A DNA stretch of 64,000 bases from positions 1 through 64,000 of the forward strand of contig JAUHXR010000001.1 in the NCBI GenBank assembly GCA_030426845.1, read 5' to 3'. The notes beneath the pieces are model-generated. The model did not search any database. It saw only the letters and a list, made by a program, of their open reading frames with translations, and was not told the origin of the DNA. Positions 7,117 through 61,621 of this stretch are shown one piece after another. Source of the DNA: Polyangia bacterium (lineage in GTDB: Bacteria > Myxococcota_A > Polyangia > Polyangiales > Sandaracinaceae). Position numbers and translations under genes: made by a program. How positions within the stretch are numbered: the stretch's first letter is position 1; each line of letters opens with the position of its first letter.

Positions 7117-7122
7117 AGCTTA
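7117..7122 (-). promoter_or_regulatory. -10 element of the carboxylase operon (leaderless type)
   Basis: On the minus strand TAAGCT is followed by eight bases and then the ATG at 7108. No purine-rich ribosome-binding site fits between them, so the mRNA probably starts at or next to the ATG. Confidence 0.45.
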
Positions 7123-7183
7123 CCCGATCGTCGGGCCCGGTCGCGGCGAGAGGGTTCGGCTCGCGCGACCGGTCGGGGTGGAT

Positions 7184-7189
7184 TAACAT
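7184..7189 (+). promoter_or_regulatory. -10 element of the 7199 lipoprotein gene
   Basis: TAACAT is followed by nine bases and the ATG at 7199. It shares the 90-bp divergent region with the carboxylase operon promoter. Confidence 0.4.
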
Positions 7190-7198
7190 CGCCCTCCG

Positions 7199-8944
7199 AT
7201 GCTGTCTTACACCCGCCTGTCCGCGCTGCTGCTCACCGGCGGCCTCCTCCTCGCCACCGGCTGCGACTGCTCCGCCGCCCCCGGCCCCCGCGACGCCGGT
7301 CGCGGTCAGGACGCCGGCGACCGGCCGGGCTTCGACGCCGGCCCGCGCGCCGACGCGGGCGAGGTCGACGAGTGCTACACGGGCCTCGACGAGGACGGCG
7401 ACGGGATGATCGACGAGGAGTGCGAGTGCATGGCCGGCGAGGCCCAGCGCTGCTACCGCGGCGACCCGTCCCTCGCGGGGATCGGCGCCTGCCGCTGGGG
7501 CGAGATGCGCTGCATCTCCGACTTCGAGTTCAGCGGCTGGGACGTCTGCGAGGGCGACGGCATGCCGTCCGACGAGCTCTGCGACGGCGTCGACAACAAC
7601 TGCGACGGCGTGGTCGACGAGGGCTGCTCCTGCATCACGGGGGAGATGCGCAGCTGCTACTCCGGCCCCGCCGGGACCGAGGGCGTCGGCTCCTGCGTGC
7701 CCGGCACCGAGACCTGCGAGGAGACCGCGACGGGCGCCGACTGGGGCGGCTGCGTCGGCGAGACCGGCCCGAGCATGGAGCTGTGCAACGGCATGGGTGA
7801 CGAGGACTGCGACGGCCTCGTGGACGAGGGCTGCACCTGCGCGCTCGGCTCCACCCAGTCCTGCTACGGTGGCCCGGCCGGGACGGCGGGCACCGGCGAG
7901 TGCCGCGCGGGCACCCAGACCTGCGTGGGCATGGGGCCGTCGAGCCGCTGGGGGACCTGCACCGGCGAGACGCGCCCGGGGACCGAGGCGTGCACCGGCG
8001 GCCGCGACGAGGACTGCGACGGCGACATCGACTGCGCCGACAGCGACTGCGCGAGCAGCCCCGCCTGCTGCACGCCCTACGACGAGCGCCTCCCCGTCAT
8101 CCCGGCGGAGGGCGAGATCCTCTTCATCGTCGACCGCTCCGGGAGCATGGACTGGCCGGCGGTGGGGACCACCCGCACCCGCTGGCAGGAGCTCGACTCG
8201 GCGATGGCCACGGTGCTCCCGATGGTCGACCCGCTGCCCCTCGGGATGCTGATGTTCCCGCGGCTCACCGGCGGCTCCGAGTCGGGCAACTGCATGGTGA
8301 GCGCCAGCCCCGAGGTGCCCATCGCGCTCGGGACGCGCCCGACGATCCAGTCGGCCCTCGTCGCCAACGACCCGCGCGCGGGCGACACCCCGACGCCTCA
8401 GGCCTTCGGCGTCGCCCAGAGCTACCTGATGAGCACGCCGACGGGTCGCGAGCGCTTCGCGATCCTCCTCACCGACGGCCTGCCCGAGCCGAACTGCGGC
8501 TCGACGGTCCCGGCCACGGTGGCCGCGATCAACAACATCCGCACGACGCTCATGATGGACGTGTTCGTCATCGGCATCGTCGGCCCCGATCGCGACGGCG
8601 ACACGAGCGGCATCCCTGCGCTCCAGGACGCGCTCAACATGTTCGCGGTGGCGGGCGGACGCCCGCGCTCGGGCGCGGTGCGCTACTACGAGGCGACCGA
8701 CGGCGCCGCGCTCACCTCGGCCATGACCTCGGTCCTCGCGGCGGCCACCGACTGCCGCTTCCGGCTGCCGAGCGCGCCGCCCACGCCGAGCACCCTCCAG
8801 GTGCGTCAGGACGGGCTGCTCATCCCGCGCAGCAGCTTCAACGGCTACACGATCAGCGGCCGCGACCTCGAGTTCCACGGCGCGTTCTGCAGCGCGATCC
8901 AGGCGGGCCTCATCACGACGATCCGCGTGACCGACCCCTGCTGA
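7199..8944 (+). CDS. lipoprotein with MopE-like Cys-rich repeats and a VWA domain
   Basis: 581 aa. A signal peptide ends at a lipobox (LLLATGC, Cys22), followed by a DAG-rich linker. Residues 55-290 hold four Cys-rich repeats with the acidic motif CDGxxDNNCDGxxDEGC, the calcium-binding-like module of MopE proteins common in Myxococcota. Residues from about 300 form a von Willebrand factor A domain with an intact metal site ([10 protein letters not shown], Asp312/Ser314/Ser316, and [11 protein letters not shown]). It should be anchored in the outer membrane and bind a protein or matrix ligand; the ligand is unknown. The ATG at 7199 gives a perfect lipoprotein signal. The gene stands alone between a divergent operon and the 8973 gene. 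Confidence 0.8.
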
Positions 8945-8972
8945 GCCGCTCGGCGCGCGTGGTGGTCAGGCG

Positions 8973-9893
8973 GTGGATCGCTACGCACAGATCGCGATCG
9001 ACTCGACGGTCGGCTACGCGCGCTACCTCTGGCGCGACGTCACCCAGCCGAGCCTCCACAGCTACTTCTACCTGCTGATCGGCGTCTCGCTTCTGGTCTA
9101 CGCGCTCGAGCTCGCGCGGCCGTGGCGTGAGGCGCAGCCCCGCGTGCGCCGCGACTTCTGGCTCGACGCGTTCTACATGTTCTTCAACTTCTTCCTGTTC
9201 TCCCTCGTCGGCTACAACGCCGCCTCCGACGTGGTGGTCCAGCTCGTCAACGACGGCCTCGCGTCCGTCGGGGTCGAGAACCTCGTCGCGATACAGGTCG
9301 GCGCGCTGCCCACGTGGGCGCAGCTCGTCTTGCTCTTCGTGCTGCGTGACCTGATCCACTACTGGGTCCACCGCCTGCTGCACGCGGTCCCGTGGCTCTG
9401 GCGCGTCCACCAGGTCCATCACTCCGTGCGCGAGATGGGCTTCGCAGCGCACCTCCGGTTCCACCCCGGCGAGACGATCGTCTACCGCGCGATCGAGTAC
9501 CTGCCGCTCGCCGCGATCGGCTTCGGCATCGACGACTTCCTCCTCGTGCACGTCACCGCGCTCACGATCGGGCACCTCAACCACGCCAACCTGCGCGTCC
9601 CGATCGGCCCGCTGCGCTACCTGCTCAACTCGCCGCAGATGCACCTGTGGCACCACGTGAAGGCGCTGCCCGAGCCGCGCGGGGTGAACTTCGGCATCAG
9701 CCTGAGCCTCTGGGACTGGGTGTTCGGCACCGCCTACTGGCCGTACGACGACCCCGACCTCGAGCTCGGCTTCGAGGGAGTCGAGGCCTACCCGCGTGGC
9801 TTCTTCGGGCAGCTCCTCGCGCCGCTGACGTGGCGAGCCGCTAGTCGCCCGCGAGGGCCGTCCGGATCGCGAGCCGGAGCGCGGCCGGAGTGA
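8973..9893 (+). CDS. sterol desaturase / fatty acid hydroxylase superfamily membrane protein
   Basis: 306 aa polytopic protein with the His-box arrangement of the membrane di-iron hydroxylases: HYWVHRLLH, HQVHHS and HLWHH, plus further His residues (HLRFHPGE, GHLNHAN). These coordinate two irons and oxidise C-H bonds in lipids or sterols using oxygen. Hydrophobic spans precede the first box (FYLLIGVSLLVYALEL, FYMFFNFFLFSLVGY). The GTG at 8973 is the first plausible start, 28 bases after the preceding stop. Its last 17 codons overlap, on the opposite strand, the 3' end of the histidine kinase gene (9841-9893). The tail SRPRGPSGSRAG is low-complexity and may have arisen by loss of an earlier stop. 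Substrate unknown. Confidence 0.82.
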   Translation: MDRYAQIAIDSTVGYARYLWRDVTQPSLHSYFYLLIGVSLLVYALELARPWREAQPRVRRDFWLDAFYMFFNFFLFSLVGYNAASDVVVQLVNDGLASVGVENLVAIQVGALPTWAQLVLLFVLRDLIHYWVHRLLHAVPWLWRVHQVHHSVREMGFAAHLRFHPGETIVYRAIEYLPLAAIGFGIDDFLLVHVTALTIGHLNHANLRVPIGPLRYLLNSPQMHLWHHVKALPEPRGVNFGISLSLWDWVFGTAYWPYDDPDLELGFEGVEAYPRGFFGQLLAPLTWRAASRPRGPSGSRAGARPE

Positions 9894-11355
9894 ACGGCTT
9901 GGTCAGCATCGGGATGCGCACGGTGTCAGGCTCGCGATGGACGACCTCGGGCGCGTGGCCCGACATGAGCAGCGTGCGGACCGCGGGCGCGCGCTCGCGC
10001 AGCCGCTCGACGAGCTCGAAGCCGCCCATGCGCGGCATCACCACGTCGGAGAGGACGAGGTCGAGCGCGTCGCCGAGCGCCTCCGCCTTGGCGAGCGCCT
10101 CCTCGCCGTCAGCGGCCTCGAAGACGCGGTAGCCCGCGCGACGCAGCAGCCGCGCGACCGCACGCCGGACGTCGGGCTGATCGTCGACCACCATCACGCA
10201 GGCGCTCTCGGGCGCGGGACCGGGGGGGGTGGGAGCGCCGGCCCGTAGCGATCGCATCGCGCCGGCGGCGGGGAGATAGACCTCGAAGCAGGAGCCCGCG
10301 CCCGGCTTGCTGTAGACCCGGATCGCGCCGCCCGCGCGCCGCACGATGCCGTGGCAGGTCGCGAGGCCGAGGCCGCCACCGCGGCCCTCCTTGGTGGTGA
10401 AGAAGGGCTCGAACAGGCGCTCCTGCGTCGCCTCGTCCATTCCGACCCCCCGGTCGGACACGACGATGCAGACGTAGTCGCCGGGCGAGAGCGGCGCGCC
10501 GCGCGCGACCTCGAGAGGCTCGTCCTGGGTCACGGCGCGGCAGCGGATCGAGAGCTCGCCACCGTCGGGCATCGCGTCGCGCCCGTTGACCGCGAGGTTG
10601 ACCACGAGCTGCTCGAGCTGTCCCGGGACCAGGTCGACTGCGCCGACCGGGGGCTCGAGCTCGACGGTGAGCTTCACCTTCGGGCCGAGCGAGCGCGTGA
10701 GCAGGCGGCCGAGCCGGGAGACCGTCGTCTCGACGTCGACCCGCTCGGCGGGCTCGGGGGAGCTCTGCGCGAAGGCCAGGAGCTGGCGGCTGAGATCACC
10801 GGCGCGCTCCGCTCCTTCGAGCATCCGATCGACGTCGAGGAACGCGGGGTGCGACGGGCCGAGCTCCTCTTTGGCCAGCTCGCCGTGGGTGCGGATCACC
10901 GTCAGGAGGTTGTTGAGCTCGTGGGCCAGCCCACCCGCGAGCTGCTCGACCGCCGCGAGCCGCTCCTGCTGCGTCGCGCGGCGATCGAGGGCCTTGCGCT
11001 CGGTGATGTCGATCGAGAGGATCATCACCCCGGCCGGCACGCGCGCGATCCGCAGCTCGAACCAGCGCCGCTCCCCGCTCGGGAAGACGAACTCGTTCTC
11101 CATCCGGTGCTCGCCTCCGTCGCGCAGCACGTCCTGGAGGTGGCCGAACATCTCCGACTCGTCGATGCCGGGGTACGCCTCGACCATCCGCTGCCCGATG
11201 AGCTGCTCGGGGGTGCGCTGCCCGTGCGCGGCCGCGACGGGGTTGATGTAGAGGTACTCGAACTCGGGGCTGAGCACCTGCAGGCCGTCCGCGACGTGCG
11301 CGAACACGTCCGCGAGGCTTTCGGCGTCGAGCGCCAGAGCGCGGCGTCTACCCAT
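9841..11355 (-). CDS. PAS-domain hybrid sensor histidine kinase with C-terminal receiver
   Basis: 504 aa, no membrane span, so cytoplasmic. A PAS domain covers residues 12-120, ending in the PAC-like SIDITERKALDRR. The kinase dimerisation helix carries the phospho-accepting His145 in AGGLAHELNNLLT, and the ATPase domain shows the N, G1, F and G2 boxes (NLAVNGRDAM, DRGVGMDE, FEPFFTTK, GLGLATCHGIV). The C-terminal receiver has the acidic pair VVDDQ, phosphorylatable Asp437 in SDVVMPRMGG and LTKPF. Such hybrids usually pass phosphate to a separate phosphotransfer protein or regulator, none of which is adjacent. The ATG at 11355 has a distant upstream region rich in A/T shared with the divergent reductase promoter. 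Confidence 0.92.
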   Translation of the reverse strand: MGRRRALALDAESLADVFAHVADGLQVLSPEFEYLYINPVAAAHGQRTPEQLIGQRMVEAYPGIDESEMFGHLQDVLRDGGEHRMENEFVFPSGERRWFELRIARVPAGVMILSIDITERKALDRRATQQERLAAVEQLAGGLAHELNNLLTVIRTHGELAKEELGPSHPAFLDVDRMLEGAERAGDLSRQLLAFAQSSPEPAERVDVETTVSRLGRLLTRSLGPKVKLTVELEPPVGAVDLVPGQLEQLVVNLAVNGRDAMPDGGELSIRCRAVTQDEPLEVARGAPLSPGDYVCIVVSDRGVGMDEATQERLFEPFFTTKEGRGGGLGLATCHGIVRRAGGAIRVYSKPGAGSCFEVYLPAAGAMRSLRAGAPTPPGPAPESACVMVVDDQPDVRRAVARLLRRAGYRVFEAADGEEALAKAEALGDALDLVLSDVVMPRMGGFELVERLRERAPAVRTLLMSGHAPEVVHREPDTVRIPMLTKPFTPAALRLAIRTALAGD

Positions 11356-11421
11356 GGGTGGTCTCGCAGCACGAATTACCGGACGGCTCCGCGCTAGTTC
11401 AACGTCCCCAAATGGTGTTTA

Positions 11422-11442
11422 GTGTCTAGTGGCGCTTGACAC
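11422..11442 (+). promoter_or_regulatory. GTGTC-N11-GACAC dyad over the -35 of the reductase operon
   Basis: A perfect 5-bp dyad, GTGTC (11422-11426) and GACAC (11438-11442), overlaps the TTGACA -35 hexamer. It is a candidate operator for the MerR-family regulator encoded second in the same operon, or for another repressor. Confidence 0.35.
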
Positions 11443-11464
11443 AATACACGGGCACCCCTAGCCT
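11436..11464 (+). promoter_or_regulatory. sigma-70-type promoter, TTGACA-N17-TAGCCT, leaderless
   Basis: A consensus -35 TTGACA (11436-11441) is separated by exactly 17 bases from TAGCCT (11459-11464). The ATG of the reductase gene follows only six bases after the -10, so transcription should start on or next to the ATG. This is the best-matched promoter in the window. Confidence 0.75.
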
Positions 11465-11470
11465 CGAGGC

Positions 11471-12931
11471 ATGACGGTCGCGCGCCGATCCGGGCTGGCG
11501 GAGGGGCTTCCGATGGGATCGCCGACCGCGCACCGCGTCGCCGATGGCGCCGCGCGTCTGCCGAGCGAGCCCTCGGTCACCGCGGTCGACGTGGCCGCGA
11601 GCGCGCTCGCTCGCCTCACGCCGCGCCGGCATCGGGCCCGGCTCGAGCAGCTCCGCCACGACCTGAACGCGGTGCTCGGCGGCTTCGTCGGGCGGCGACC
11701 CCTGCCGTTCAGCGATCGGGCGCGCCCCCCGACGCGGCCGCGTCCGCTCGGCGACATCGACCCGGTCGAGCACCTGCTGCCCGGCCACGCGCTGCGGCGG
11801 CGCTGGGTCACCCTCCGCACCGACGTGAAGTGGATCGCGGGCGACCTCCGGGGCGAGGGGCGCCCCGCGACCGTGCCGCGCGGCCCGAGCCGCTACCGGC
11901 GCGCCGACCCGCTCGCGCCGCGCCCGCTGCGGGTGCGCGAGGTCACGCGCGAGACGGCCGACGCGGTCACGATCGCCCTCGAGGAGCCGAGCGGCGAGCC
12001 GCTGCGCTTCGAGGCCGGCCAGTTCCTCACCTTCCACCTCACGATCGGCGGGCGCGCCGTGCGGCGGGCCTACTCGCTGAGCAGCTCTCCGCTCGACGGG
12101 CCGGGCGCGCGCGTGACCGTCAAGCGGCTCCCCGGCGGGCTCGCCTCGGGGTGGATGCACCAGGTCCGTCCTGGGGACGTCCTGATGGCCCGCGGGCCGG
12201 CCGGGCGGTTCACCGCGCGTGACACGGGCGACGCGGAGCTCACGCTGATCGCGGGCGGCAGCGGGATCACCCCGATCGCCTCCATCGCGGAGACCGCGCT
12301 CCGGTCGAGCGACGCCCGCGTCCGGCTCCTCTACGGCAACCGCCGCCTCGAGGACGTGATCTTCGCCGATCGGCTCGACGCCCTCGCGCGGCGCTACCCC
12401 GATCGATTCACCCTCGCGCGCTCCCTCGACGAGCCGCCCGCCGGCTGGGGCGAGGGCCGCGGCCCGCTCGACGAGGCGCGCGTCGGCGCGTGGCTCGACG
12501 CCCTCGACGACGCCCCGCGCCGCTACTTCCTTTGCGGACCTTCGGGGATGCTCGCGGCGGCCCGGGCCGCGCTCGCCGCGCGCGGCGTCCCCGCGAGCCA
12601 CGTCCTCGAGGAGCGCTTCGGCTCGCCGGAGACCGCGCCGTCGGCCGCGCTCCCCGACGCGACGGTCACCGCACACCTCCGCGTCGCCGGCCGGGACTTC
12701 GTCGCCCGCGTCGCGCCCGGCTCCACGCTGCTCGAGGCGGGCCTCGCGGCGGGCGCGCCCATGCCGTTCTCCTGCGCGATGGGCGGCTGCGGCGCGTGCC
12801 GCGGCAAGCTGCGCGCGGGCCAGGTGCAGATGGACGAGCCGAGCTGCCTCACCGCCCGCGAGCGCGCCGAGGGCTTCGTGCTCCCCTGCTGCTCCCGCCC
12901 GCTCGGGGACGTTCAGCTGGAGGTCGACTGA
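11471..12931 (+). CDS. ferredoxin-NAD(P)H reductase-type oxidoreductase with C-terminal [2Fe-2S] domain
   Basis: 486 aa. An N-terminal extension of about 140 residues precedes a flavin-binding barrel with RRAYSLSSSP (FAD contact), a nucleotide-binding domain with IAGGSGITP, YGNR and CGPSGM, and a plant-type ferredoxin domain with Cys435, Cys440, Cys443 (CAMGGCGACRGK) and Cys473 or 474. Electrons therefore run NAD(P)H to FAD to the iron-sulfur cluster and out to a partner. The obvious partner is the di-iron protein two genes downstream. The ATG at 11471 is fixed by a strong promoter whose -10 ends six bases before it. The stop overlaps the MerR start (TGATG). The arrangement recalls the reductases that serve desaturases and alkane- or fatty-acid oxygenases. 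Confidence 0.88.
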   Translation: MTVARRSGLAEGLPMGSPTAHRVADGAARLPSEPSVTAVDVAASALARLTPRRHRARLEQLRHDLNAVLGGFVGRRPLPFSDRARPPTRPRPLGDIDPVEHLLPGHALRRRWVTLRTDVKWIAGDLRGEGRPATVPRGPSRYRRADPLAPRPLRVREVTRETADAVTIALEEPSGEPLRFEAGQFLTFHLTIGGRAVRRAYSLSSSPLDGPGARVTVKRLPGGLASGWMHQVRPGDVLMARGPAGRFTARDTGDAELTLIAGGSGITPIASIAETALRSSDARVRLLYGNRRLEDVIFADRLDALARRYPDRFTLARSLDEPPAGWGEGRGPLDEARVGAWLDALDDAPRRYFLCGPSGMLAAARAALAARGVPASHVLEERFGSPETAPSAALPDATVTAHLRVAGRDFVARVAPGSTLLEAGLAAGAPMPFSCAMGGCGACRGKLRAGQVQMDEPSCLTARERAEGFVLPCCSRPLGDVQLEVD

Positions 12932-13662: not shown

Positions 13663-13680
13663 GCAGCGTGTGAGGTCGGC

Positions 13681-15754: not shown

Positions 15755-15764
15755 GGTGTACCAT
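15755..15764. promoter_or_regulatory. overlapping divergent leaderless -10 elements
   Basis: On the plus strand TACCAT (15759-15764) ends seven bases before the GTG at 15772. On the minus strand TACACC (15760-15755) ends seven bases before the ATG at 15747. The two hexamers overlap by two bases, so the polymerases would compete for one site. The minus element is weaker. Confidence 0.45.
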
Positions 15765-18324: not shown

Positions 18325-18353
18325 TTGCTGGCGACCCGGCGCCTGCCCACCCT
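18325..18353 (+). promoter_or_regulatory. promoter TTGCTG-N17-CACCCT, leaderless
   Basis: TTGCTG (18325-18330), a 17-base spacer, and CACCCT (18348-18353) ending six bases before the GTG at 18360. The same TTGCTGGCG/17-base geometry is found before the miaE gene at 33583, which supports both. Confidence 0.5.
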
Positions 18354-19482: not shown

Positions 19483-19488
19483 TAGGTT
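19483..19488 (+). promoter_or_regulatory. -10 element TAGGTT before the 19496 gene
   Basis: TAGGTT is followed by seven bases and the GTG at 19496. It decides the start: the ORF is open far upstream, but only this GTG has both a -10 element at leaderless distance and an immediate lipoprotein signal. Confidence 0.45.
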
Positions 19489-22458: not shown

Positions 22459-24612
22459 TCAATGGGCCGCGGCGGGCGCGTCCCCGACGATCACGCGCGC
22501 GTCGATCGCGGTGAGGCCGCGCGCGGTGATCACCAGCGGGTTCAGGTCGAGCTCCTGGATGTCGGGGCAGGCCTCGACGAGCGCGCTGATCCGCACGCAG
22601 AGCTCCGCGAGCTCGGCCCGGTCCAGGACCGGCCGCTTGCGCGCGCCGTCGAGGAGCGGCTGGGCGCGGATCTCGTCGATCATCTCGAGCGCGTCACGGC
22701 GCGTCATCGGCACGAGCCGGAACGCGACGTCCTTGTAGACCTCGACGAAGATCCCGCCCATCCCGACCATCAGCATCGGGCCGAAGCCGGGGTCGCGGCT
22801 CATGCCGACGATCACCTCGGTGCCCTTGACCTGCTCCTCGACGGTGAAGCCGTCGATCGTCGCGCCGGGCTGGTGCTTGGCGACGTTCTCGCGGATGGAT
22901 GCGCAGGCCTCGCGCACGCCGTCCGCGTCGACGATGTCGAGGACGACCCCGCCGACGTCCGACTTGTGGATGACGTCGTTGGAGATGAGCTTCACCACCA
23001 CCGGGTAGCCGATCGACTCGGCGGCCTCGACCGCGCCCTGGATGTCGGGCGAGGTGGCGGAGCGGTTGTAGTAGATGCCCGCCTTCTCGAGGATGCGGCG
23101 CGCGAGCGCGAGGTCGGTGTTGGAGACGCCCTTGGCCTTGGCCTCGGCGACGAGCGCTTTGGCGCCGTCGAGATCGGGCGCGGGGTGCCGCGTGAGCTGC
23201 GCGGGCGCGGCGTCCCCCCGGGCCAGCCAGGCGCCGCGGCGCGCGAGGGCGCCCATCGCGCTCACCGCGAGCTCGGGCATGTTGAACTCGGGGATGCCAG
23301 CCGCGTCGAGGGCGCTGCCGACCTCGGTGCCGATCAGGCCGATGAAGCTGGCGAGGAGCGGCTTGTCCCACCCGTCGGCGTCGTGCGCGGCCACGATCGC
23401 GCGCGCGGTCTCTTCGGGATCGGTCATCGCCTGGACGGTCATGATGAGCACGACGCCGTCGACCTCGTCCGCCTCGCCGAGGATGCGGAGCGCGTCCCGG
23501 TAGCGCTCGGGCGTGGCGTCGCCGATCACGTCGACCGGGTTGTTGCGCGACCACACCGCCGGGAGGACCTCGTCGAGCGCGGCCATCGTCTCGGCGCTCA
23601 GCGTCGCGAGCTCGAGCCCGTGGCGCGCGCAGGCGTCCGCCGCGAGCACGCCGGGGCCGCCCGCGTTGGTGACGATCGCGACGCGCCGGCCGCGCGCGGG
23701 CGGCTGGTGCGCGAGCGCGCGGGACCACGCGGCGAAGGACCCGAGGCTGTTCGCCTGGAGCACGCCGGCCTGGGCGAAGGCCGCGGTGTAGGCCGCGGAC
23801 GCGCCCGCGAGGCTCCCCGTGTGGCTCGACGCGGCCTTGGCGCCGGCGGCGGTGGTGCCGCCCTTGATCGCGACGATCGGCGTGCCGCGGCTCACCTCGC
23901 GCGCGACCTCGAGGAAGCGCGGCGGATCGTGGAGCGCCTCGACGTAGAGCGCGATCGCCTTGGTGCGCGGGTCGGCGTCGAACCATCGCAAGATGTCTTG
24001 ATCATCGACGTCGCTCTTGGCGCCGAGCGAGACCGCCGCGCTCATCCCGAACTTCTCGCGCTGCGCGTAGCTGATCATCCCGGTCACGAGCGCGCCCGAC
24101 TGGCTGAGCAGGCCGATGTGTCCGTCCGGCGGCGCGCTCGCGCCGAAGCTCGCGTTGAGGCGCTGACCGGGCCGGATCACCCCCAGGCAGTTGGGGCCGA
24201 TGACGCGCATCCCGTGGGCGCGCGCGACCGCGACCATCTCGTCCTGGAGCGCCTTGCCGTCCGCGCCCATCTCCGCGAAGCCCGCGGTGATGACGATCGC
24301 AGCCTTGGTCCCGAGCCCGCCAGCCTCTTCGATCACGCCCTTGACGTACTTGGGCGGGATCGCGATGAGGACGAGGTCCACCGGGGCGCCGATCGCGGTG
24401 AGCGACTCGTACACCGGCTGCCCGAGCAGCTCGCCGCCCTTGCGGTTGACCGCGTAGACCTCCCCGCGGAAGCCCTCGCTCCGCTGATCGCCCCGCATCG
24501 CGCCGAAGAGCAGGTTCTTGAGGAGGGCGTGGCCGACCGCCTCGGGGCGGCTGCTCGCGCCCACCACCGCGACCGAGCGGGGGGCGAAGAAGGGGCTCAG
24601 ATCGTCGCTCAT
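22459..24612 (-). CDS. NDP-forming acyl-CoA synthetase (acetate-CoA ligase, ADP-forming type), fused subunits
   Basis: 717 aa. CoA-binding Rossmann domain ([11 protein letters not shown]), succinyl-CoA-ligase-like domains with the phosphorylatable His264 in SSHTGSLAG, and a C-terminal ATP-grasp domain ([42 protein letters not shown]). The alpha and beta parts are fused in one chain, as in bacterial ADP-forming acetyl-CoA synthetases and their acyltransferase relatives; no GNAT domain is present. It interconverts acyl-CoA and free acid with formation or use of a nucleoside triphosphate. The ATG at 24612 has AAAGGA seven bases upstream. It is divergent from the pyrophosphatase gene. Confidence 0.9.
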
Positions 24613-24619
24613 GACTCAG

Positions 24620-24663
24620 TCCTTTGGTCCCGGGGAGCCGGGATGCTAACAGAGGGCGAGGAG
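24620..24663. promoter_or_regulatory. paired Shine-Dalgarno sites and divergent promoter region
   Basis: On the minus strand AAAGGA (24625-24620) lies seven bases before the ATG of the acyl-CoA synthetase. On the plus strand GAGGAG (24658-24663) lies six bases before the ATG of pyrophosphatase. TAACAG/TAGCAT-like -10 elements sit between them near 24644-24652. These two genes therefore have leaders, unlike most genes in the window. Confidence 0.55.
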
Positions 24664-24669
24664 TCCACG

Positions 24670-28240: not shown

Positions 28241-28246
28241 TATACT
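28241..28246 (+). promoter_or_regulatory. -10 element TATACT before the 28253 gene
   Basis: TATACT, five of six matches to TATAAT, stands out in GC-rich surroundings and ends six bases before the ATG at 28253. No Shine-Dalgarno sequence is present. A recognisable -35 is not seen. Confidence 0.6.
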
Positions 28247-29568: not shown

Positions 29569-29574
29569 AGCCTA
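29569..29574 (-). promoter_or_regulatory. -10 element TAGGCT before the 29562 gene
   Basis: On the minus strand TAGGCT is followed by six bases and the GTG at 29562. It begins directly at the upstream NUDIX stop codon, giving an internal promoter in the nadA-NUDIX cluster. Confidence 0.5.
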
Positions 29575-31626: not shown

Positions 31627-31632
31627 ATCCTA
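31627..31632 (-). promoter_or_regulatory. -10 element TAGGAT of the nadA operon
   Basis: On the minus strand TAGGAT ends seven bases before the nadA ATG. CCGACC lies 17 bases further upstream and could serve as a -35. No Shine-Dalgarno sequence. Confidence 0.5.
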
Positions 31633-33547: not shown

Positions 33548-33576
33548 TTGCTGGCGCGCGGCGCGCGAGGTAATCC
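33548..33576 (+). promoter_or_regulatory. promoter TTGCTG-N17-TAATCC of miaE, leaderless
   Basis: TTGCTG (33548-33553), 17 bases, TAATCC (33571-33576), then six bases to the GTG at 33583. Same geometry and same -35 hexamer as the promoter at 18325. Confidence 0.55.
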
Positions 33577-38128: not shown

Positions 38129-38175
38129 CCTGCTCTCGACACGCCGCGGCCCGGTGCTAGACCGTCCCGTCCATC

Positions 38176-43233: not shown

Positions 43234-43239
43234 ATGGTA
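43234..43239 (-). promoter_or_regulatory. -10 element TACCAT deciding the start of the giant lipoprotein
   Basis: On the minus strand TACCAT is followed by seven bases and the GTG at 43226. It lies downstream of the alternative ATG at 43253, so if it is used the protein must begin at the GTG. Confidence 0.45.
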
Positions 43240-43290
43240 CCGCAACCTGACATGGCGTCACCGTCGGTGTGCGATGTACTCTCTTTGGCG

Positions 43291-46979: not shown

Positions 46980-46985
46980 TATGCT
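46980..46985 (+). promoter_or_regulatory. -10 element TATGCT before the 46992 gene
   Basis: TATGCT ends six bases before the GTG at 46992. It favours that start over an upstream GTG at 46959 and an internal ATG at 47031. Confidence 0.45.
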
Positions 46986-49486: not shown

Positions 49487-49493
49487 GGGCCGG

Positions 49494-49499
49494 ACGATA
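49494..49499 (-). promoter_or_regulatory. -10 element TATCGT before the 49486 gene
   Basis: On the minus strand TATCGT ends seven bases before the GTG at 49486, with GTGACC 17 bases further upstream as a possible -35. Confidence 0.5.
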
Positions 49500-49529
49500 G
49501 CGGGCGGATCGCGAAGGGTCACGTTCCCA

Positions 49530-49550
49530 CCCCGCGCTATCGTCGCGGGG
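49530..49550 (+). promoter_or_regulatory. 7-bp inverted repeat around the -10 of the chaC-like gene
   Basis: CCCCGCG (49530-49536) and CGCGGGG (49544-49550) flank TATCGT (49538-49543), the -10 element for the ATG at 49552. A protein bound to the dyad would occlude the promoter, or the RNA start would be embedded in a hairpin arm. Confidence 0.5.
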
Positions 49551-49551
49551 C

Positions 49552-52578: not shown

Positions 52579-52585
52579 GACCCTA
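52579..52585. promoter_or_regulatory. overlapping divergent -10 elements between 52571 and 52592
   Basis: On the minus strand TAGGGT (52585-52580) ends eight bases before the SDR ATG. On the plus strand GACCCT (52579-52584) ends seven bases before the GTG at 52592. Nearly the same base pairs serve both directions, so the two genes may compete. Confidence 0.4.
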
Positions 52586-54751: not shown

Positions 54752-54757
54752 AGCGCG

Positions 54758-54776
54758 AGTCTAACCCCTCGAGGGG
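54758..54776. promoter_or_regulatory. TAGACT -10 next to a perfect CCCCTCGAGGGG palindrome
   Basis: On the minus strand TAGACT (54763-54758) ends six bases before the GTG at 54751. The 12-bp palindrome CCCCTCGAGGGG (54765-54776) begins one base further upstream, between the -10 and any -35, where a repressor would block the promoter. Confidence 0.5.
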
Positions 54777-54822
54777 CGCCCTGCATACGCGGCCTGCATG
54801 CGCGATCCGGCCCCAAAGTGGG

Positions 54823-54828
54823 TAGACT
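54823..54828 (+). promoter_or_regulatory. -10 element TAGACT before the 54836 gene
   Basis: TAGACT, identical to the divergent element at 54758-54763, ends seven bases before the ATG at 54836. The two phosphoesterase genes may be controlled together. Confidence 0.5.
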
Positions 54829-54835
54829 GCGGACC

Positions 54836-56527: not shown

Positions 56528-56621
56528 CCCGGGCGTCTCATCTCGAGACGAAACCCCACAATTGCGCGCGGCCCGCTAAAGGCTGGCCCACCGAGGTCGT
56601 TTCGGTCCGGGTGAGGAACCC

Positions 56622-57404
56622 GTGGGCGCAGCACGCAAGAAAAACACCGAGGACTTCGCCGCCGTCATGCGGCTCGACGCCTACGCGGGCGGCGAGCTAG
56701 GGCCGCGCACGAGGCTGATCCAGGAGGCGCTCGACCAGGTGCTCACCCCGATGGTGCGCGACCAGGTCATGGCCCGCGCGGGGTGGGACGACACGTCCGA
56801 CGCGCCGGCCGATCGGCGCCTCGACTACAAGGCGTGGGTGGACACGAAGCTGTTCCCGCGCCTCGTGGACAAGACGACGCTCACGAGCGCGGACGAGCTG
56901 CGACGCAGCGTGCGCCAGCTCCTCGAGCGGACCGATCCGCCGCCCGCGCCGGAGGAGCCCGAGGCGGCCGCCGGGCGCTCGGGCCTGCGCCTGCGCCGGC
57001 CGACCCCGCCGCCGCAGACGGTCATCCCCCGGCCGTCGGGCTCGACGATCCTGCTCTGGACTCGCAACAGCGACACCTTCCAGAAGCTGCAGCGGGCGTT
57101 CGGGACGCGCGCGGAGCTCGTGCTGGTCTCGGACGCGCTGGAGATGCTCTCGACGATGCAGGTGCTGGACGGGCGCGTGTCGCTCGTGGTGGTGGACGAC
57201 CGTGAAGACCTCGACCAGGGCCTGAGGCTCCTGACCCCCGAGGACCTCCGCGGACACCAGATCGTCGTCTGGGGCCCCGAGAGCCTCACGACCCCGACCT
57301 GGGGGCGGCTCCTCGGCGAGGCCGACCGAGCGGTCGGGTGCACCGGCGAGGCCTCGCTCGGGGACGTCGCGGACCTCTGCACGGCGATCCTCGGGGTCGG
57401 GTGA
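56622..57404 (+). CDS. pseudo-receiver-like protein
   Basis: 260 aa; not assigned to a named family. Basic N-terminus (MGAARKKNTED), a helical region to residue 110, a Pro-rich linker (EEPEAAAGRSGLRLRRPTPP), then an alpha/beta domain resembling a response-regulator receiver (STILLWTRNSDTFQKL, VSLVVVDDREDLDQG, GHQIVVWGPESL). The usual acidic pair after strand 1 is absent; the Asp pair at VVDDRED is at the position of the phospho-acceptor. GTG start with TGAGGA five bases upstream. It may sense or scaffold rather than transfer phosphate. Confidence 0.6.
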   Translation: MGAARKKNTEDFAAVMRLDAYAGGELGPRTRLIQEALDQVLTPMVRDQVMARAGWDDTSDAPADRRLDYKAWVDTKLFPRLVDKTTLTSADELRRSVRQLLERTDPPPAPEEPEAAAGRSGLRLRRPTPPPQTVIPRPSGSTILLWTRNSDTFQKLQRAFGTRAELVLVSDALEMLSTMQVLDGRVSLVVVDDREDLDQGLRLLTPEDLRGHQIVVWGPESLTTPTWGRLLGEADRAVGCTGEASLGDVADLCTAILGVG

Positions 57405-57439
57405 GGCCGGCGGCGGTGACGCCGGCCGCCGGCAGCCGC

Positions 57440-57445
57440 TACCCT
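57440..57445 (+). promoter_or_regulatory. -10 element TACCCT of the P450 gene
   Basis: TACCCT ends seven bases before the ATG at 57453; GTGACG lies 18 bases upstream of it and may act as -35. Confidence 0.5.
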
Positions 57446-57452
57446 CCAGCTC

Positions 57453-58841
57453 ATGCTCGAGCACCTCGCGGAACGCGCGGCGGGCGCGGTGCGCGCGCGG
57501 AGCCGGTACCCCCGGCTGCCGGCCGGGCCGCCCGAGCCCGCGGCCCTGCAGACCGCCCAGTGGATCGCGCGCCCGACCCGCTTCCTGGAGCGCTGCCGCG
57601 CGCGCTACGGCCGCGTGTTCACGATGCGCCTCATCGCGCAGGAGCCGTTCGTGTCGTTCAGCGACCCGGACGCGATCAAGGAGATCTTCACCGGCTCGCC
57701 CGACGCGCTCCACGCCGGCGAGGCCAACGTGGTGCTCGAGCCGATCCTGGGCGAGCACTCGGTCCTCCTGCTCGACGGCCCGCGTCACCTGCGCCAGCGC
57801 CGCCTCCTCCTGCCGCCGTTCCACGGCCAGCGCATGCGCGCGTACGGCGAGACGATCCGCGAGGCGACGCTCCGCTCGATGGCCGGCTGGCCGCGCGGCC
57901 GCCCGTTCCGCGCCCACGACCGCACCCAGGCGATCACCCTCGAGGTGATCCAGCGCGCGGTGTTCGGCATCGAGCGCGACGACGAGATCGAGACCTTCGG
58001 CCGCGCGCTCGCGAGCCTCCTCGACACGATCGCGAACCCGCTGCTGCTCATCCCCGCTGTGCAGACCGACCTCGGTCCTTGGTCGCCGGGCGCGATCCTC
58101 GCGCGGCGCCTCGCGGAGCTCGACGCGCTGCTCTTCGCGCAGATCCGCGCCCGCCAACGGGAGGGCCGCGCCGGGCGCGAGGACATCCTCTCGATGCTCG
58201 TGGAGGCGGTCGACGAGGACGGCGCGCGGATGACGGAGCAGGAGCTGCGCGATGAGCTGATGACCCTGCTGGTCGCCGGCCACGAGACCACCGCCACCTC
58301 GCTCGCGTGGACCTTCCACCGCCTCCTCGAGCACCCCGAGGCCCTCGCCCGCGCCTACGAGGAGGTCGACGCGGTCTTCGGAGGCGGCCCGATCGACCCC
58401 GATCGGGTCCACGAGCTGCGGTGGATCGACGCCGTCGCGCGCGAGACGCTCCGCCTCAACCCGGTCCTGCCGGCGGTCGGGCGGCGCCTCCAGACCGATC
58501 TGCGCATCGGCGGGGTGGATCTGCCGCGCGGCGTCGTCGCGCTCCCCAACATCTACCTCACCCACCGGGATCCGCGCGCCTGGCCGGAGCCGGAGCGGTT
58601 CGACCCGTCGCGCTTCCTCGACGGCAAGCCGTCGCCCTACGCGTTCTTCCCCTTCGGCGGCGGCATCCGGCGGTGCATCGGCATGGCGTTCGCGCTCTAC
58701 GAGATGCAGGTGGCGCTCGCGACCATCCTGTCGCGGCTGACGCTCCTGCCCGCGCCCGGCGCGCGCGTGCGGCTCACCCGCCGCGCGATCACCTTCGCGC
58801 CCTCGGAGGGCATGCCCCTCGTGGTCCGCGATCGGCGCTGA
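57453..58841 (+). CDS. cytochrome P450
   Basis: 462 aa. All P450 landmarks are present: I-helix oxygen-binding LLVAGHETTATSLAW, K-helix ETLR, PERF-type EPERFDPSRF, and the haem loop FPFGGGIRRCIGMAFA with the axial Cys408. The sequence style, with an N-terminal proline-rich RYPRLPAGPP and no membrane anchor, resembles the bacterial CYP110-like or fatty-acid/terpenoid hydroxylase clades. It needs an external ferredoxin and reductase; none is adjacent, though the reductase at 11471 could serve. The radical SAM gene follows by 98 bases on the same strand. Confidence 0.94.
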   Translation: MLEHLAERAAGAVRARSRYPRLPAGPPEPAALQTAQWIARPTRFLERCRARYGRVFTMRLIAQEPFVSFSDPDAIKEIFTGSPDALHAGEANVVLEPILGEHSVLLLDGPRHLRQRRLLLPPFHGQRMRAYGETIREATLRSMAGWPRGRPFRAHDRTQAITLEVIQRAVFGIERDDEIETFGRALASLLDTIANPLLLIPAVQTDLGPWSPGAILARRLAELDALLFAQIRARQREGRAGREDILSMLVEAVDEDGARMTEQELRDELMTLLVAGHETTATSLAWTFHRLLEHPEALARAYEEVDAVFGGGPIDPDRVHELRWIDAVARETLRLNPVLPAVGRRLQTDLRIGGVDLPRGVVALPNIYLTHRDPRAWPEPERFDPSRFLDGKPSPYAFFPFGGGIRRCIGMAFALYEMQVALATILSRLTLLPAPGARVRLTRRAITFAPSEGMPLVVRDRR

Positions 58842-58890
58842 GCCGCCGGCCCCGCGCGCCCCACCGGGCCGTTCGAGAAAATCGCGCCGA

Positions 58891-58904
58891 GATCACCCGT
58901 GATC
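58891..58904 (+). promoter_or_regulatory. GATCAC-CC-GTGATC dyad upstream of the radical SAM gene
   Basis: A perfect 6-bp inverted repeat with a two-base centre lies 35 bases before the ATG at 58940, in an A/T-richer patch. It looks like a dimer-binding operator. No convincing -10 at leaderless distance is seen here. Confidence 0.4.
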
Positions 58905-58939
58905 AAAGCCTCGCGCCGCCTCGCGCGTCTCACCGCCTC

Positions 58940-60310
58940 ATGGACGTCGCGCTCATCCTGACTCACCGGTGCAACCTCGCCTGCGGCTACTGCTACGCGG
59001 GCGAGCACCACAAGACCGACATGTCCCCCGCGGTGCTGGAGCGAGCCGTCCGGCTGCTCTTCTCGGACGGCGCCCCCCGGGCCCAGCTCAGCTTCTTCGG
59101 CGGCGAGCCCTTCCTCGCGTTCGACACGATGAAGCGCGCGGTCGCCCTCGCGCGCGGCCAGGCCCAGGCCCTCGGCCGCGAGCTCGTCCTGCAGTGCACG
59201 TGCAACGGCTCGGTCCTCACCGACGAGCACGTCCGCTTCATCCGGGACAACGACATGAAGGTGACCGTCTCCATCGACGGCGTCCGCGAAGCCCACGACC
59301 TCAACCGCCCCTGCGCGGGCGGCAAGCCGAGCTTCGACCAGGTCCACCGCGGCCTGCGGCGCCTGCTCGACGCGGGCGCCCGCTGCGACGCGCTCATGGT
59401 CATCACGCCCGAGACCGCCCCCTACGCCTACGCGTCGGCGAACTTCCTCTGGAGCGAGGGCGTCGAGACGATCCGGGCCAACCTCGCGCTCGGCGAGGAC
59501 TGGACCGAGGCCCGCGTCGGGCTGCGCGAGGAGCTGGTGTCGATCGGCTGGGAGCTGCTCGCGCGCCGGATGAAGGGCGAGGCCGTCTCGTTCAAGCCGT
59601 TCGAGCGCGGGCTCCGCAGCCTCGATCCGCTCCCCGCCGCGGCCGGCCCTCGCCGCGACAAGGTCGTCGTCGGCACCTCCGGCCACCTCTACCCGTGCGC
59701 CCCGATGGTGGGCGAGGATCGCGACGACGGCCCGGAGGCCCGGCTGCGCCTCGGCCACCTGGACGACGGCCCCGAGGCGGTCGCGCGGCAGGTCCGCGCG
59801 CAGGGCGTCGGGTGCGACCGCGGCGGCAAGTGCGAGTGCGCGGCCTACCTCGAGACCGGCGACCGCTACACCGCCGGGAAGATGGGCCGCTGGTACGGCC
59901 GGGTGAGCTACGAGATCGGTCAGGCGGTGGCCGAGGCGCTCGCCCGGCAGCCGGCGCCGCCGCCGAGCCCGCGCCGCCGCCGGGTGATGATGGGCCTCAC
60001 CGCGATCGTCGGCGCCGCGGTCGGCGCGCCCCTCCTCGCGAGCTTCCTCGCGGACGACCCGGAGGCGCCGCGCCCTTGCCGCCTGCGCACGCGCAAGGAC
60101 GTCGCGCCCTACCCCGACGACGTCCCGATCCCCGGCGAGATGTCCGCGCCCCTGGACGAGCCCGAGATCACGCCCGACGGAGCGATGGAATTCGGGCCGC
60201 CGGAGCCGCCGCCGGAGCCGATGATCGAGGGCGAGCTGGTGTTCGAGCCCGAGCCTCCTCCGCCGCCGGAGGGGGAGGTCGTGGACGGCGACTTCGGCGA
60301 GGCCCTCTGA
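58940..60310 (+). CDS. radical SAM/SPASM-like protein with C-terminal membrane span and acidic proline-rich tail
   Basis: 456 aa. The cluster motif CNLACGYC (Cys11, Cys15, Cys18) starts almost at the N-terminus, followed by SFFGGEPFL and TVSIDGVREAHD of the radical SAM barrel. A Cys-rich C-terminal part (TSGHLYPCAPMVG; GCDRGGKCECAAYLETGD) resembles SPASM auxiliary-cluster domains of peptide-modifying enzymes. After RRRR a hydrophobic span (about 350-370) leads to an 85-residue tail rich in Pro, Glu and Asp. A membrane-tethered radical SAM enzyme with a free tail is unusual. No small precursor gene is evident beside it. Possible targets are peptides, or its own tail. Confidence 0.8.
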   Translation: MDVALILTHRCNLACGYCYAGEHHKTDMSPAVLERAVRLLFSDGAPRAQLSFFGGEPFLAFDTMKRAVALARGQAQALGRELVLQCTCNGSVLTDEHVRFIRDNDMKVTVSIDGVREAHDLNRPCAGGKPSFDQVHRGLRRLLDAGARCDALMVITPETAPYAYASANFLWSEGVETIRANLALGEDWTEARVGLREELVSIGWELLARRMKGEAVSFKPFERGLRSLDPLPAAAGPRRDKVVVGTSGHLYPCAPMVGEDRDDGPEARLRLGHLDDGPEAVARQVRAQGVGCDRGGKCECAAYLETGDRYTAGKMGRWYGRVSYEIGQAVAEALARQPAPPPSPRRRRVMMGLTAIVGAAVGAPLLASFLADDPEAPRPCRLRTRKDVAPYPDDVPIPGEMSAPLDEPEITPDGAMEFGPPEPPPEPMIEGELVFEPEPPPPPEGEVVDGDFGEAL

Positions 60311-60329
60311 CGGACCTCGGCGCGGTCGC

Positions 60330-61025
60330 TCACCCGCCGAAGCGGTAGCCGTAGCGCGCGACGATCGACGCGTCGGCACGCGCGACCTCCTCGGCGAGGG
60401 CCGCGTCGTACTCGCCTACGTAAGGCCCGCGCTCGCTCGCGTTGATCGGCGCGCGGGCCTCGAGGTCGGCGCGCATCGCGGGGGTGACCTCGACCCCCGC
60501 CCCCTCGACGCCACGCACGAGGTCCTCGCGCAGCGCCTCGAAGCGCCCGACGAAGGCGGGCGCGGGCCCGAGCATCCGCGCGACGAGCCACGAGAAGTAG
60601 CCCTCTCGGCCCATGGTCGAGAGGTCGGCGCGGACCAGCCCGGGACCGCGGTGCCCGGACGGCGCCGCCTCGGGCAGGCGCGCCTGGATCAGCCCGCGCA
60701 GCGCGGCGAAGTAGGGGTCGTCCGTACCCAGCAAGAGGAGCTGCCGGATCGTCTCTGCGAAGCCGAGCCGCCCGCGGTCGGACACGTAGGTGAAGATCGG
60801 GTTGCGGGGGCGGGGCGCGTTGTAGCGGTACCAGGACACGTACCAGTCCCAGGGGTCGCGCACGAAGCCGATCACCGGCCGTCCCGCGAGCGCGGCCGGC
60901 CGGTCGCGGAGCGGGGCGTGGTAGCCGACCTCGGTCACGTCGAGGTGGGCCCGGAGCCACGCGCTCGCGAACTGACCGCCCGTCCGATGCACATGGACGA
61001 ACACGAACTTGTCGTGGACGAGCAT
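60330..61025 (-). CDS. sulfotransferase-family protein
   Basis: 231 aa. PAPS-binding motifs: FVFVHVHRTGGQFASAWL (5'-phosphosulfate loop, with Gln where Thr or Ser is common) and VIGFVRDPWDWYVSWY (3'-phosphate strand). Short for the family, close to the tyrosyl/carbohydrate-type bacterial sulfotransferases. The ATG shares one base with the stop of the hydroxylase-like gene upstream, so the two are coupled. The substitution in the loop makes activity less certain. Convergent with the radical SAM gene, stops 20 bases apart. Confidence 0.75.
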   Translation of the reverse strand: MLVHDKFVFVHVHRTGGQFASAWLRAHLDVTEVGYHAPLRDRPAALAGRPVIGFVRDPWDWYVSWYRYNAPRPRNPIFTYVSDRGRLGFAETIRQLLLLGTDDPYFAALRGLIQARLPEAAPSGHRGPGLVRADLSTMGREGYFSWLVARMLGPAPAFVGRFEALREDLVRGVEGAGVEVTPAMRADLEARAPINASERGPYVGEYDAALAEEVARADASIVARYGYRFGG

Positions 61026-61609
61026 CAGCCCGAGAGGATGTCGCGCGCGAGCAGCGACGCGGCGCGGCGCCGCGCGAGGTCCGGCGTCACGTAGTCGAGG
61101 ATCAGGTGCACCCGCGGCGCGTCGCCCGCGTTGACGACCGAGTGCGGGCGCAGGTTGTTGATCTCCCACAGCTCACCGACGCGGAGCGCGCGCCGGGTCT
61201 CGCCCACCGTGAAGCGCACCTCGTCCGACGTGAGCAGCGGCGCGTGCACCCGGTGCGCGAACGGGAGCGAGAGGCCGCCGTCGGCGTGCCGTGGGATCGA
61301 GGCGCGCGGCGCGAGCCGCGTGAGGATCACGCGCAGGAAGTAGCCCTCGCCCAGCCCCGCCCGCACCGCGTCGAGCACCGGCTCGAGCGCCGCCTCGAAG
61401 CGCGGCCACGCCTCGCGCCGCGTCGGGTCCTCGTGGCGGAAGTCCTCGTCGTAGACGAGCGGCACCACCTCGGTGTGGGCGTGGGTCTTGAACGTCTCCT
61501 GACGCCATCGCTCCCGCGCCCACTCCGCGTCGCCGATCGCGGCCGCGAGCGCGCTCAGCGCCGAGACGTCGAGCTCCGCGAGGAGCCGCATGTCGCCGCC
61601 GAAGTCCAC
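61025..61609 (-). CDS. aspartyl/asparaginyl beta-hydroxylase-fold (Fe/2-oxoglutarate) protein
   Basis: 194 aa. The double-stranded beta-helix motif H-x-D is IPRHADGG (His108, Asp110), the distal iron His is His156 in LRPHSVVN, and Arg166 in PRVHLILDYV is the 2-oxoglutarate or sulfate anchor. ELWEINNLRPHS is the family signature. Members hydroxylate Asp, Asn, Pro or free amino acids. The GTG at 61609, fixed by TACCGT six bases upstream, is preferred over the ATG at 61591. First gene of a two-gene operon with a sulfotransferase: hydroxylation could create the hydroxyl that is then sulfated. Confidence 0.85.
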   Translation of the reverse strand: MDFGGDMRLLAELDVSALSALAAAIGDAEWARERWRQETFKTHAHTEVVPLVYDEDFRHEDPTRREAWPRFEAALEPVLDAVRAGLGEGYFLRVILTRLAPRASIPRHADGGLSLPFAHRVHAPLLTSDEVRFTVGETRRALRVGELWEINNLRPHSVVNAGDAPRVHLILDYVTPDLARRRAASLLARDILSG

Positions 61610-61615
61610 TCGCGA

Positions 61616-61621
61616 ACGGTA
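61616..61621 (-). promoter_or_regulatory. -10 element TACCGT of the hydroxylase/sulfotransferase operon
   Basis: On the minus strand TACCGT ends six bases before the GTG at 61609. It lies just after the stop of the preceding gene and makes the pair an independent transcription unit. Confidence 0.5.

What the first reader, a model, noticed from the sequence alone, without database searches (positions are those of the whole stretch)
7117..61621. Window-wide leaderless promoter signature: -10 hexamer 6-9 bases before the start codon
About twenty genes have TAnnnT or a near match ending 6-9 bases before ATG or GTG, with no Shine-Dalgarno sequence: TAGCCT/11471, TACCAT/15772, CACCCT/18360, TAGGTT/19496, TATACT/28253, TAGGCT/29562, TAGGAT/31619, TAATCC/33583, TACCAT/43226, TATGCT/46992, TATCGT/49486 and 49552, TAGGGT/52571, TAGACT/54751 and 54836, TACCCT/57453, TACCGT/61609, TAAGCT/7108, TAACAT/7199. 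Three also have a -35 (TTGACA or TTGCTG) at exactly 17 bases. In DNA this GC-rich such hexamers are rare by chance. Leaderless mRNA is well known in Deinococcus and actinobacteria; I know of no description as a dominant mode in this group.
Basis: partly seen in the sequence, partly recalled or inferred. Interest (0 to 1): 0.75.

Follow-up and report, generated by a model that had tools for sequence, protein, structure and literature searches.

The report
Leaderless-gene promoters in a Sandaracinaceae genome
In this myxobacterial relative a sizeable minority of genes seem to be read from messages that begin right at the start codon, a mode of gene expression already known in other bacteria, so this extends a known list and is not a new mechanism.

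Summary
In 634 kb of the same genome, TANNNT begins 12-15 bases before the start in 64 of 484 ab initio starts, about 4 expected, with an abrupt edge: 26 at -12, none at -11. The peak appears without any gene model, not at out-of-frame start codons, and is no stop-codon artefact. TGn and TTGAC at 17 bp mark a sigma-70 promoter. It sits at heads of transcription units; tight downstream genes carry Shine-Dalgarno (SD) sites. TTG starts are nearly absent. Some orthologues keep the box, others have SD or neither. Best reading: leaderless or near-leaderless transcripts. 'Dominant' is too strong: 12-22% of genes, 18-33% of divergent first genes. 'Undescribed' is too strong: Zheng et al. 2011 reported this signature in 8 of 33 delta-Proteobacteria genomes. 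Added here: it recurs across the class and is weak or absent in four sampled genomes of other classes. No 5' ends were mapped.

The parts
7117..7122 (-). -10-like TAAGCT, gap 8 to ATG 7108 (carboxyltransferase gene 5489-7108)
   Evidence: finder's start was 7189, same frame
7184..7189 (+). -10-like TAACAT, gap 9 to ATG 7199 (VWA-domain protein); divergent to 7108
11436..11464 (+). TTGACA, 17 bp, TAGCCT; gap 6 to ATG 11471 (FAD/NAD/2Fe-2S oxidoreductase)
   Evidence: finder's start was 11513
15759..15764 (+). TACCAT before GTG 15772: doubtful, frame overlaps a better-supported minus-strand gene
18325..18353 (+). TTGCTG, 17 bp, CACCCT (not strict TANNNT); gap 6 to GTG 18360 (peptidase M74)
   Evidence: finder's start was 18459
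19483..19488 (+). TAGGTT, gap 7 to GTG 19496
28241..28246 (+). TATACT, gap 6 to ATG 28253
29569..29574 (-). TAGGCT, gap 6 to GTG 29562
31627..31632 (-). TAGGAT, gap 7 to ATG 31619 (NadA)
   Evidence: strict box at gap 6 in 2 of 6 family orthologues
33548..33576 (+). TTGCTG, 17 bp, TAATCC (not strict); gap 6 to GTG 33583 (MiaE)
   Evidence: family orthologues
43234..43239 (-). TACCAT, gap 7 to GTG 43226
   Evidence: finder's start was 43196
43277..43282 (+).
46980..46985 (+). TATGCT, gap 6 to GTG 46992
   Evidence: finder's start was 46968
49494..49499 (-). TATCGT, gap 7 to GTG 49486 (DUF7790)
49538..49543 (+). TATCGT, gap 8 to ATG 49552 (ChaC); divergent to 49486
52580..52585 (-). TAGGGT, gap 8 to ATG 52571 (SDR)
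   Evidence: 3 of 8 family orthologues have a box, 5 of 8 an SD site
54758..54763 (-). TAGACT, gap 6 to GTG 54751 (metallophosphoesterase)
   Evidence: not called by the finder
54823..54828 (+). TAGACT, gap 7 to ATG 54836 (metallophosphoesterase); divergent to 54751
   Evidence: finder's start was 53870, which would overlap the 54751 gene
57440..57445 (+). TACCCT, gap 7 to ATG 57453 (P450)
61616..61621 (-). TACCGT, gap 6 to GTG 61609 (aspartyl/asparaginyl hydroxylase domain)
38155..38163 (+). TGCTAGACC, extended -10-like, gap 12 to ATG 38176 (proS): short-leader relative of the proS box seen in other genomes of the class

Best explanation
The hexamers are -10 elements of housekeeping (sigma-70-type) promoters placed so that transcription starts on, or within about 0-3 bases of, the first base of the start codon. 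The messages of these genes therefore have no leader, or next to none, and no SD site, and the ribosome would have to start on the 5'-terminal AUG or GUG. The mode is used for a minority (about one gene in seven or eight by strict counts, up to one in five with looser matrices), mostly first genes of transcription units; genes inside operons use SD sites. Shown here: position, edge, promoter-like context, operon position, start-codon bias, recurrence in relatives. Inferred: that RNA polymerase uses the box, the exact 5' end, and translation of leaderless messages.
For: Peak at -15..-12: 64 of 484 starts, background 4.2; -11 has 0. Gene-free count in 634 kb: ATG at gaps 5/6/7/8/9 = 2/24/21/14/8, mean of gaps 10-30 4.5; GTG 2/25/16/7/10, mean 7.7. 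In-frame candidates 85 against 10.5, out-of-frame control 6 against 8.6. Before the box T 41% and G 62% at the TGn places; at least 4 of 6 of TTGACA at spacer 17 in 9 of 64; pooled over 13 samples of the class (the 38%-GC sample G068 left out), at least 4 of 5 of TTGAC at 17 bp in 10 of 163, 5 at 16 bp, 0-3 at the other spacings listed. Divergent first genes 31 of 146 with box, tight downstream genes 5 of 137; SD 67 of 137 in the latter; both signals in 3 of 456 genes. TTG starts 2 of 163 with box, 133 of 1385 without, P 5e-5. TAC/TAT boxes alone, which are no stop codons, give 14/17/24/31 at -15..-12 and 1 at -11. proS: 20 of 22 class-like loci have TA at gap 6-10, 15 of them TGnTA, where TA occurs in about 5 of 484 starts per upstream position. 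Positive control Deinococcus radiodurans MP1 9 of 72 against 1.2; E. coli 0 of 38.
Against: No mapped 5' end. None of those 20 proS boxes has the sixth-position T, so they are TA- or TGnTA-type and not TANNNT. MiaE relatives in two genera have the box at gap 10-12, so some leaders of 3-5 bases are likely. Orthologues are mixed: strict boxes at gap 6-9 in 2 of 6 NadA, 3 of 8 DUF7790, 3 of 8 SDR and 1 of 7 MiaE relatives. A second positive control, Streptomyces avermitilis plasmid SAP1, showed no peak (1 of 41 against 0.7). Per-gap window shuffles are only modest. A free-motif mixture model found nearly as much 'motif' in shuffled as in real sequence of the window's genome, so no fraction is taken from it.
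Confidence: 0.88

Rival explanations
1. Short-leader rather than leaderless: the box is a true -10 but transcription usually starts 1-5 bases before the start codon, and an SD-free short leader is translated.
For: Gaps of 8-9 are common (33 and 27 of 163); MiaE in genera g2 and g3 has gap 10-12 with TTGACC at 17 bp; window proS gap 12.
Against: The mode is gap 6 (57 of 163) and the lower edge is where the 5' end would cut into the start codon.
Confidence: 0.25
2. The box is a translational, AT-rich signal near the start codon, not a promoter.
For: Its place, -15 to -7, is also that of ribosome-binding signals.
Against: Fixed T, A and T, TGn and TTGAC at 17 bp, rarity in tight downstream genes (5 of 137). 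In D. radiodurans the same motif was shown by mutation to be a -10 region and not replaceable by an RBS (PMC12340547, Discussion read).
Confidence: 0.03
3. Chance or gene-calling artefact: TAA/TAG hexamers are simply the stop codon that bounds the open frame, or starts were chosen to fit.
Against: Starts here were chosen from codon usage alone; TAC/TAT boxes and the out-of-frame offsets -13 and -14 peak too; gene-free count.
Confidence: 0.01
4. True promoters, but the real start codon is further downstream and the message has an ordinary leader.
For: For 11471 and 18360 the first 30 codons score poorly (-0.04 and -0.38 per codon), and the finder preferred a start further downstream for 11471, 18360 and 43226.
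Against: 17 of the 19 listed starts have a positive score in their first 30 codons, and ATG/GTG is enriched 6-8 bases after the box without any gene model (GTG at gap 8 is not).
Confidence: 0.04

Closest known systems
TA-led (leaderless) bacterial genes of Zheng et al. 2011 (PMC3160421; parts 1-3 of 7 read)
   Same: TANNNT about 12 bp before the start, no SD, weak middle bases in high-GC genomes; delta-Proteobacteria 8 of 33 genomes, mean 15.8% (5.7-20.6).
   Different: No hit for four myxobacterial name terms in their main text; here operon position, orthologues and a class-level sample are added.
-10-motif of Deinococcus-Thermus (PMC12340547; abstract, passages, sections 11 and 12 read)
   Same: TANNNT next to the open frame, short or no 5'-UTR, -35 optional, about a third of genes in D. 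radiodurans.
   Different: There shown by experiment; here 12-22% of genes and sequence evidence only; TGn is visible here.
Leaderless transcriptome of Mycobacterium tuberculosis (PMC3898074, search listing only)
   Same: By title, an extensive leaderless transcriptome; the listing shows that the paper uses the word TANNNT.
   Different: Start sites are mapped there, not here.
Bacterial species with leaderless transcription in GeneMarkS-2 (as cited in PMC9581028, passages read)
   Different: The original paper was not held, so whether Myxococcota are among them was not seen.

Membership tests
TA-led / leaderless bacterial genes | TANNNT with a sharp positional peak near -12 | tested here: met
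TA-led / leaderless bacterial genes | no SD site in the same genes | tested here: met
   both signals in 3 of 456 genes; SD tetramer between box and start in 5 of 163
TA-led / leaderless bacterial genes | first genes of transcription units, not internal ones | tested here: met
   31 of 146 divergent, 5 of 137 tight
TA-led / leaderless bacterial genes | start codon ATG or GTG, not TTG (rule recalled) | tested here: met
   TTG 2 of 163 vs 133 of 1385
TA-led / leaderless bacterial genes | box acts as the sigma-70 -10 element | tested here: inconclusive
   TGn and 17-bp TTGAC enrichment only; no transcription data
TA-led / leaderless bacterial genes | RNA 5' end at the start codon | not testable with these tools
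   needs 5'-end sequencing
TA-led / leaderless bacterial genes | leaderless message is translated | not testable with these tools
   needs reporters or ribosome profiling
Dominant leaderless genome (as claimed) | majority of genes or of first genes | tested here: not met
   12-22% of genes, 18-33% of divergent first genes

The most novel reading that the evidence does not exclude
A class-wide leaderless programme in one class of Myxococcota (Polyangia-like by record names: Sandaracinaceae, Polyangiaceae, Labilithrix), old enough that a TGnTA box before proS recurs across its families, largely missing from other classes of the phylum, with single genes switching between leaderless and SD control between genera (the SDR gene). 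That would make a Gram-negative clade with cultured members in which gain, loss and switching of leaderless expression can be followed gene by gene.
Probability: 0.5. Interest if true: 0.45.

Novelty: new member of a known kind. Interest (0 to 1): 0.3.

Why it matters
If right, start-codon annotation in this group is likely wrong for some first genes, promoters can be read directly from gene starts, and antibiotics that inhibit initiation on leadered but not leaderless messages (a contrast cited in PMC9581028, passage read) would spare a defined share of messages. It extends a known mode to a Gram-negative group known for predation and natural products (recalled), and shows candidate switches between the two modes at single orthologous genes.

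Tried and rejected
Mixture model with freely learned motifs: the 'TA' class took 25% in dinucleotide shuffles against 29% in real sequence for the window's genome; rejected as an estimator and replaced by a frozen matrix trained on other genomes.

Whole-genome pattern counts: TANNNT-6-ATG gives 290 against 70 for the reversed control, and 58 at gap 5, in the window's genome; but both controls are distorted by codon periodicity (G001: 153 against 164 reversed and 28 at gap 5, although its starts show a clear peak). Used as a rough check only: see the full report for the tally.

16S rRNA was sought to read the anti-SD tail: none found in this assembly; the same search rang in 9 of its 14 control genomes, so it is not proof of absence. 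Pooled named loci with one shared codon model gave weaker peaks (Polyangia-like 16 of 234 against 3.1; Geobacter/Desulfo group 11 of 138 against 5.6, a mild unexplained excess; Bacillota 3 of 178 against 11.7). One low-GC genome of the same class (G068, 38% GC) showed no peak (6 of 70 against 5.9); G037 had 3 of 75 against 1.1, with six genes at gap 10.

In the proS count I printed 38 loci in the main list. Of the Polyangia-like ones L003 and L009 (same upstream sequence as L002), L008 (same as L013), L006 and L007 (printed apart, both with the box; L007 has L012's sequence) and L024 (match does not begin at a start codon; printed apart) were left out of the 22. The 16 distant loci are a part of those fetched; L032, L042, L043 and L049-L088 were not looked at.
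Full report
What the window is. The window is bases 1-64000 of an 85,492-base contig of a 9.4-Mb assembly in 538 contigs, 72-77% GC. Its prolyl-tRNA synthetase is 80% identical to that of a record named Sandaracinaceae (L009); further, more distant relatives are named Sandaracinus, Polyangiaceae, Labilithrix, Myxococcales and others. It is therefore taken as a Sandaracinaceae-type member of the Myxococcota. G001, in the same family by the tool's kinship column, is one contig of 10,327,335 bases; the abstract shown for PMC5010890 gives 10.33 Mb for Sandaracinus amylolyticus, so G001 is probably that species (inference).

The observation. All 19 hexamers are at the stated starts with gaps of 6-9. 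My gene finder uses codon usage only, no upstream signal. It puts TANNNT at -15..-12 in 11 of 54 window starts, with 0 or 1 at each other position from -60 to +30. Extended to 41 stretches (634,195 bases, 484 starts with enough upstream sequence out of 511 genes) the counts at -15, -14, -13, -12, -11 are 8, 12, 18, 26, 0; other positions have 0-4; peak 64 against a background of 4.2. With in-frame alternative starts allowed the sum over gaps 6-9 is 85 against 10.5, while out-of-frame start codons in the same places give 6 against 8.6. Without any gene model, the count of ATG after TANNNT rises from 2 at gap 5 to 24 at gap 6 and averages 4.5 over gaps 10-30. Window-only shuffles are weaker per gap. 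A stop-codon artefact is excluded: boxes that begin TAC or TAT give the same peak and edge.

What it is. Aligned on the box, the window's genome shows TGn before it and TTGACA-like hexamers with a 17-bp spacer in 9 of 64; pooled over 13 samples of the class, 10 of 163 at 17 bp, 5 at 16, 3 at 18 and 0-3 at the other spacings listed. That points to a sigma-70-type promoter and not a ribosome signal. The lower edge lies where the transcript would begin on the first base of the start codon. The box (-16..-12) is found at 31 of 146 divergent first genes and 5 of 137 genes within 20 bases of a codirectional neighbour; SD tetramers do the reverse, 37 of 146 and 67 of 137; 3 of 456 genes have both. 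Genes with the box almost never start with TTG (2 of 163 against 133 of 1385), as expected if the start codon itself must be recognised at a 5' end (the rule is recalled).

How much. Strict TANNNT: 13.2% of starts. A matrix trained on other genomes gives an excess of 12-22% of all starts, 18-33% of divergent first genes and 2-5% of tight genes as the threshold is varied. SD tetramers: 29% of starts, 11% in a control position. So leaderless is a major mode, about level with SD at first genes, and not dominant overall.

Relatives, sampled starts. Peak against background in the family: G001 27 of 317 (3.3), G006 9 of 88 (0.3), G005 7 of 74 (0.8), G003 3 of 51 (0.6). Same order: G012 6 of 80 (2.3), G114 8 of 68 (0.7), G010 7 of 78 (2.2), G037 3 of 75 (1.1), G022 7 of 64 (0.6). 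Same class: G054 7 of 56 (0.3), G067 11 of 65 (0.4), G057 4 of 55 (1.3), G068 at 38% GC 6 of 70 (5.9). Other classes of the phylum: G078 3 of 61 (1.8), G076 2 of 63 (1.1), G111 0 of 64 (1.5), G104 2 of 70 (1.4). E. coli 0 of 38 (2.8) (all). With refined starts the excess is 15.4% in the window's genome, 2.5 to 25.2% in 12 of 13 other class genomes and -7.6% in G068; the four other-class genomes have 1.4, -1.3, -3.1 and -2.9%.

Relatives, whole genomes. TANNNT-6-ATG exceeds 1.5 times its reversed control in the window's genome (290 against 70), in 27 of 74 other genomes of the class (together, each genome counted once) and in 3 of 45 genomes of other classes (G075 339 vs 147, G092 144 vs 87, G109 142 vs 83). 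The tally is mine. The control is imperfect: G001 and G006 fail it although their starts show the peak, and 47 of the 74 class genomes do not pass. So the mode is commoner in this class than outside it, not universal in it by this measure, and the class boundary is a working idea.

Orthologues. proS: 20 of 22 Polyangia-like loci have TA 6-10 bases before the start, 15 of them TGnTA; none of the 20 has the sixth-position T. Several of the 22 are near relatives with similar upstream sequence (L010 and L012-L015; L011 and L021; L026 and L028), so independent cases are fewer; an SD tetramer occurs in 4 of 22, overlapping the box. Of 16 more distant loci that I printed, 4 have TA in that range and 11 an SD tetramer (the counts are mine from its listing). 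Family orthologues, read: NadA, strict box at gap 6 in 2 of 6, near match in 2, none in 2; DUF7790, strict box at gap 6-9 in 3 of 8, gap 10 in 1, none in 4 (start codons uncertain, paralogues included); SDR, strict box at gap 7-8 in 3 of 8 (two of them from one genus and nearly identical), and a GGAG-type SD site before ATGAAG in the other 5, which are of genera g2 and g3; MiaE, strict box at gap 6 in 1 of 7, TGcTACGAG at gap 7 in 1, TTGACC-17-TAGCGT at gap 10-12 in 5. The SDR gene thus seems to have changed between leaderless and SD-led within one family.

Known or new. Zheng et al. 2011 defined the same signature, read it as leaderless, and listed delta-Proteobacteria with 8 of 33 genomes, mean 15.8%. 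GeneMarkS-2, as cited in PMC9581028, predicts leaderless transcription in 21.6% of bacterial species. In Deinococcus the motif was shown by mutation and transcript data to be a -10 region giving leaderless messages. Searches in whose listings I saw no paper on leaderless genes in myxobacteria: 'leaderless' with Myxococcus (20 of 20 listed), 'leaderless genes' with Shine-Dalgarno and Sorangium (none), with myxobacteria (15 of 16 listed), with any of several genus names (5 of 293 listed), with Myxococcota (4 of 4), and start-site mapping with Myxococcus xanthus (10 of 118 listed). These are listings of titles and abstract starts; most subscription papers are not held.

Verdict. It is a known kind of feature in a group for which it had been counted, at coarse level, in 2011; it is a substantial minority mode and not the dominant one.

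Noticed in passing
   Followed up: yes
window 54752-54835, 49487-49551, 7109-7198: Three divergent gene pairs with a leaderless-type box on both sides of an intergenic stretch of 65-90 bases.
   Followed up: partly
window 24613-24669: Divergent intergenic stretch with a TTAGCAT-type element and a GC-rich dyad shared by the genes starting at 24612 (minus) and 24670 (plus, with an AGGAG SD site); seen in the strings.
   Followed up: no
L249-L257 (SDR orthologues): Same gene has a leaderless-type box in genera g1, g4, g6 and an SD site in genera g2, g3 of one family.
   Followed up: partly
L261-L265 upstream of MiaE: TTGACC-17-TAGCGT in five genomes with gap 10-12 to the start: probably leaders of 3-5 bases.
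   Followed up: partly
G062, G070, G054 (whole genomes): Three genomes of family f23 of the same class have high TANNNT-6-ATG counts against the reversed control (552 vs 100, 478 vs 109, 453 vs 122).
   Followed up: no
G075, G092, G109 (whole genomes): Other-class genomes with more TANNNT-6-ATG than the reversed control; may also use leaderless promoters.
   Followed up: no
Geobacter/Desulfo pooled loci: Mild excess of the box at -15..-12 (11 of 138 against 5.6), unexplained.
   Followed up: no
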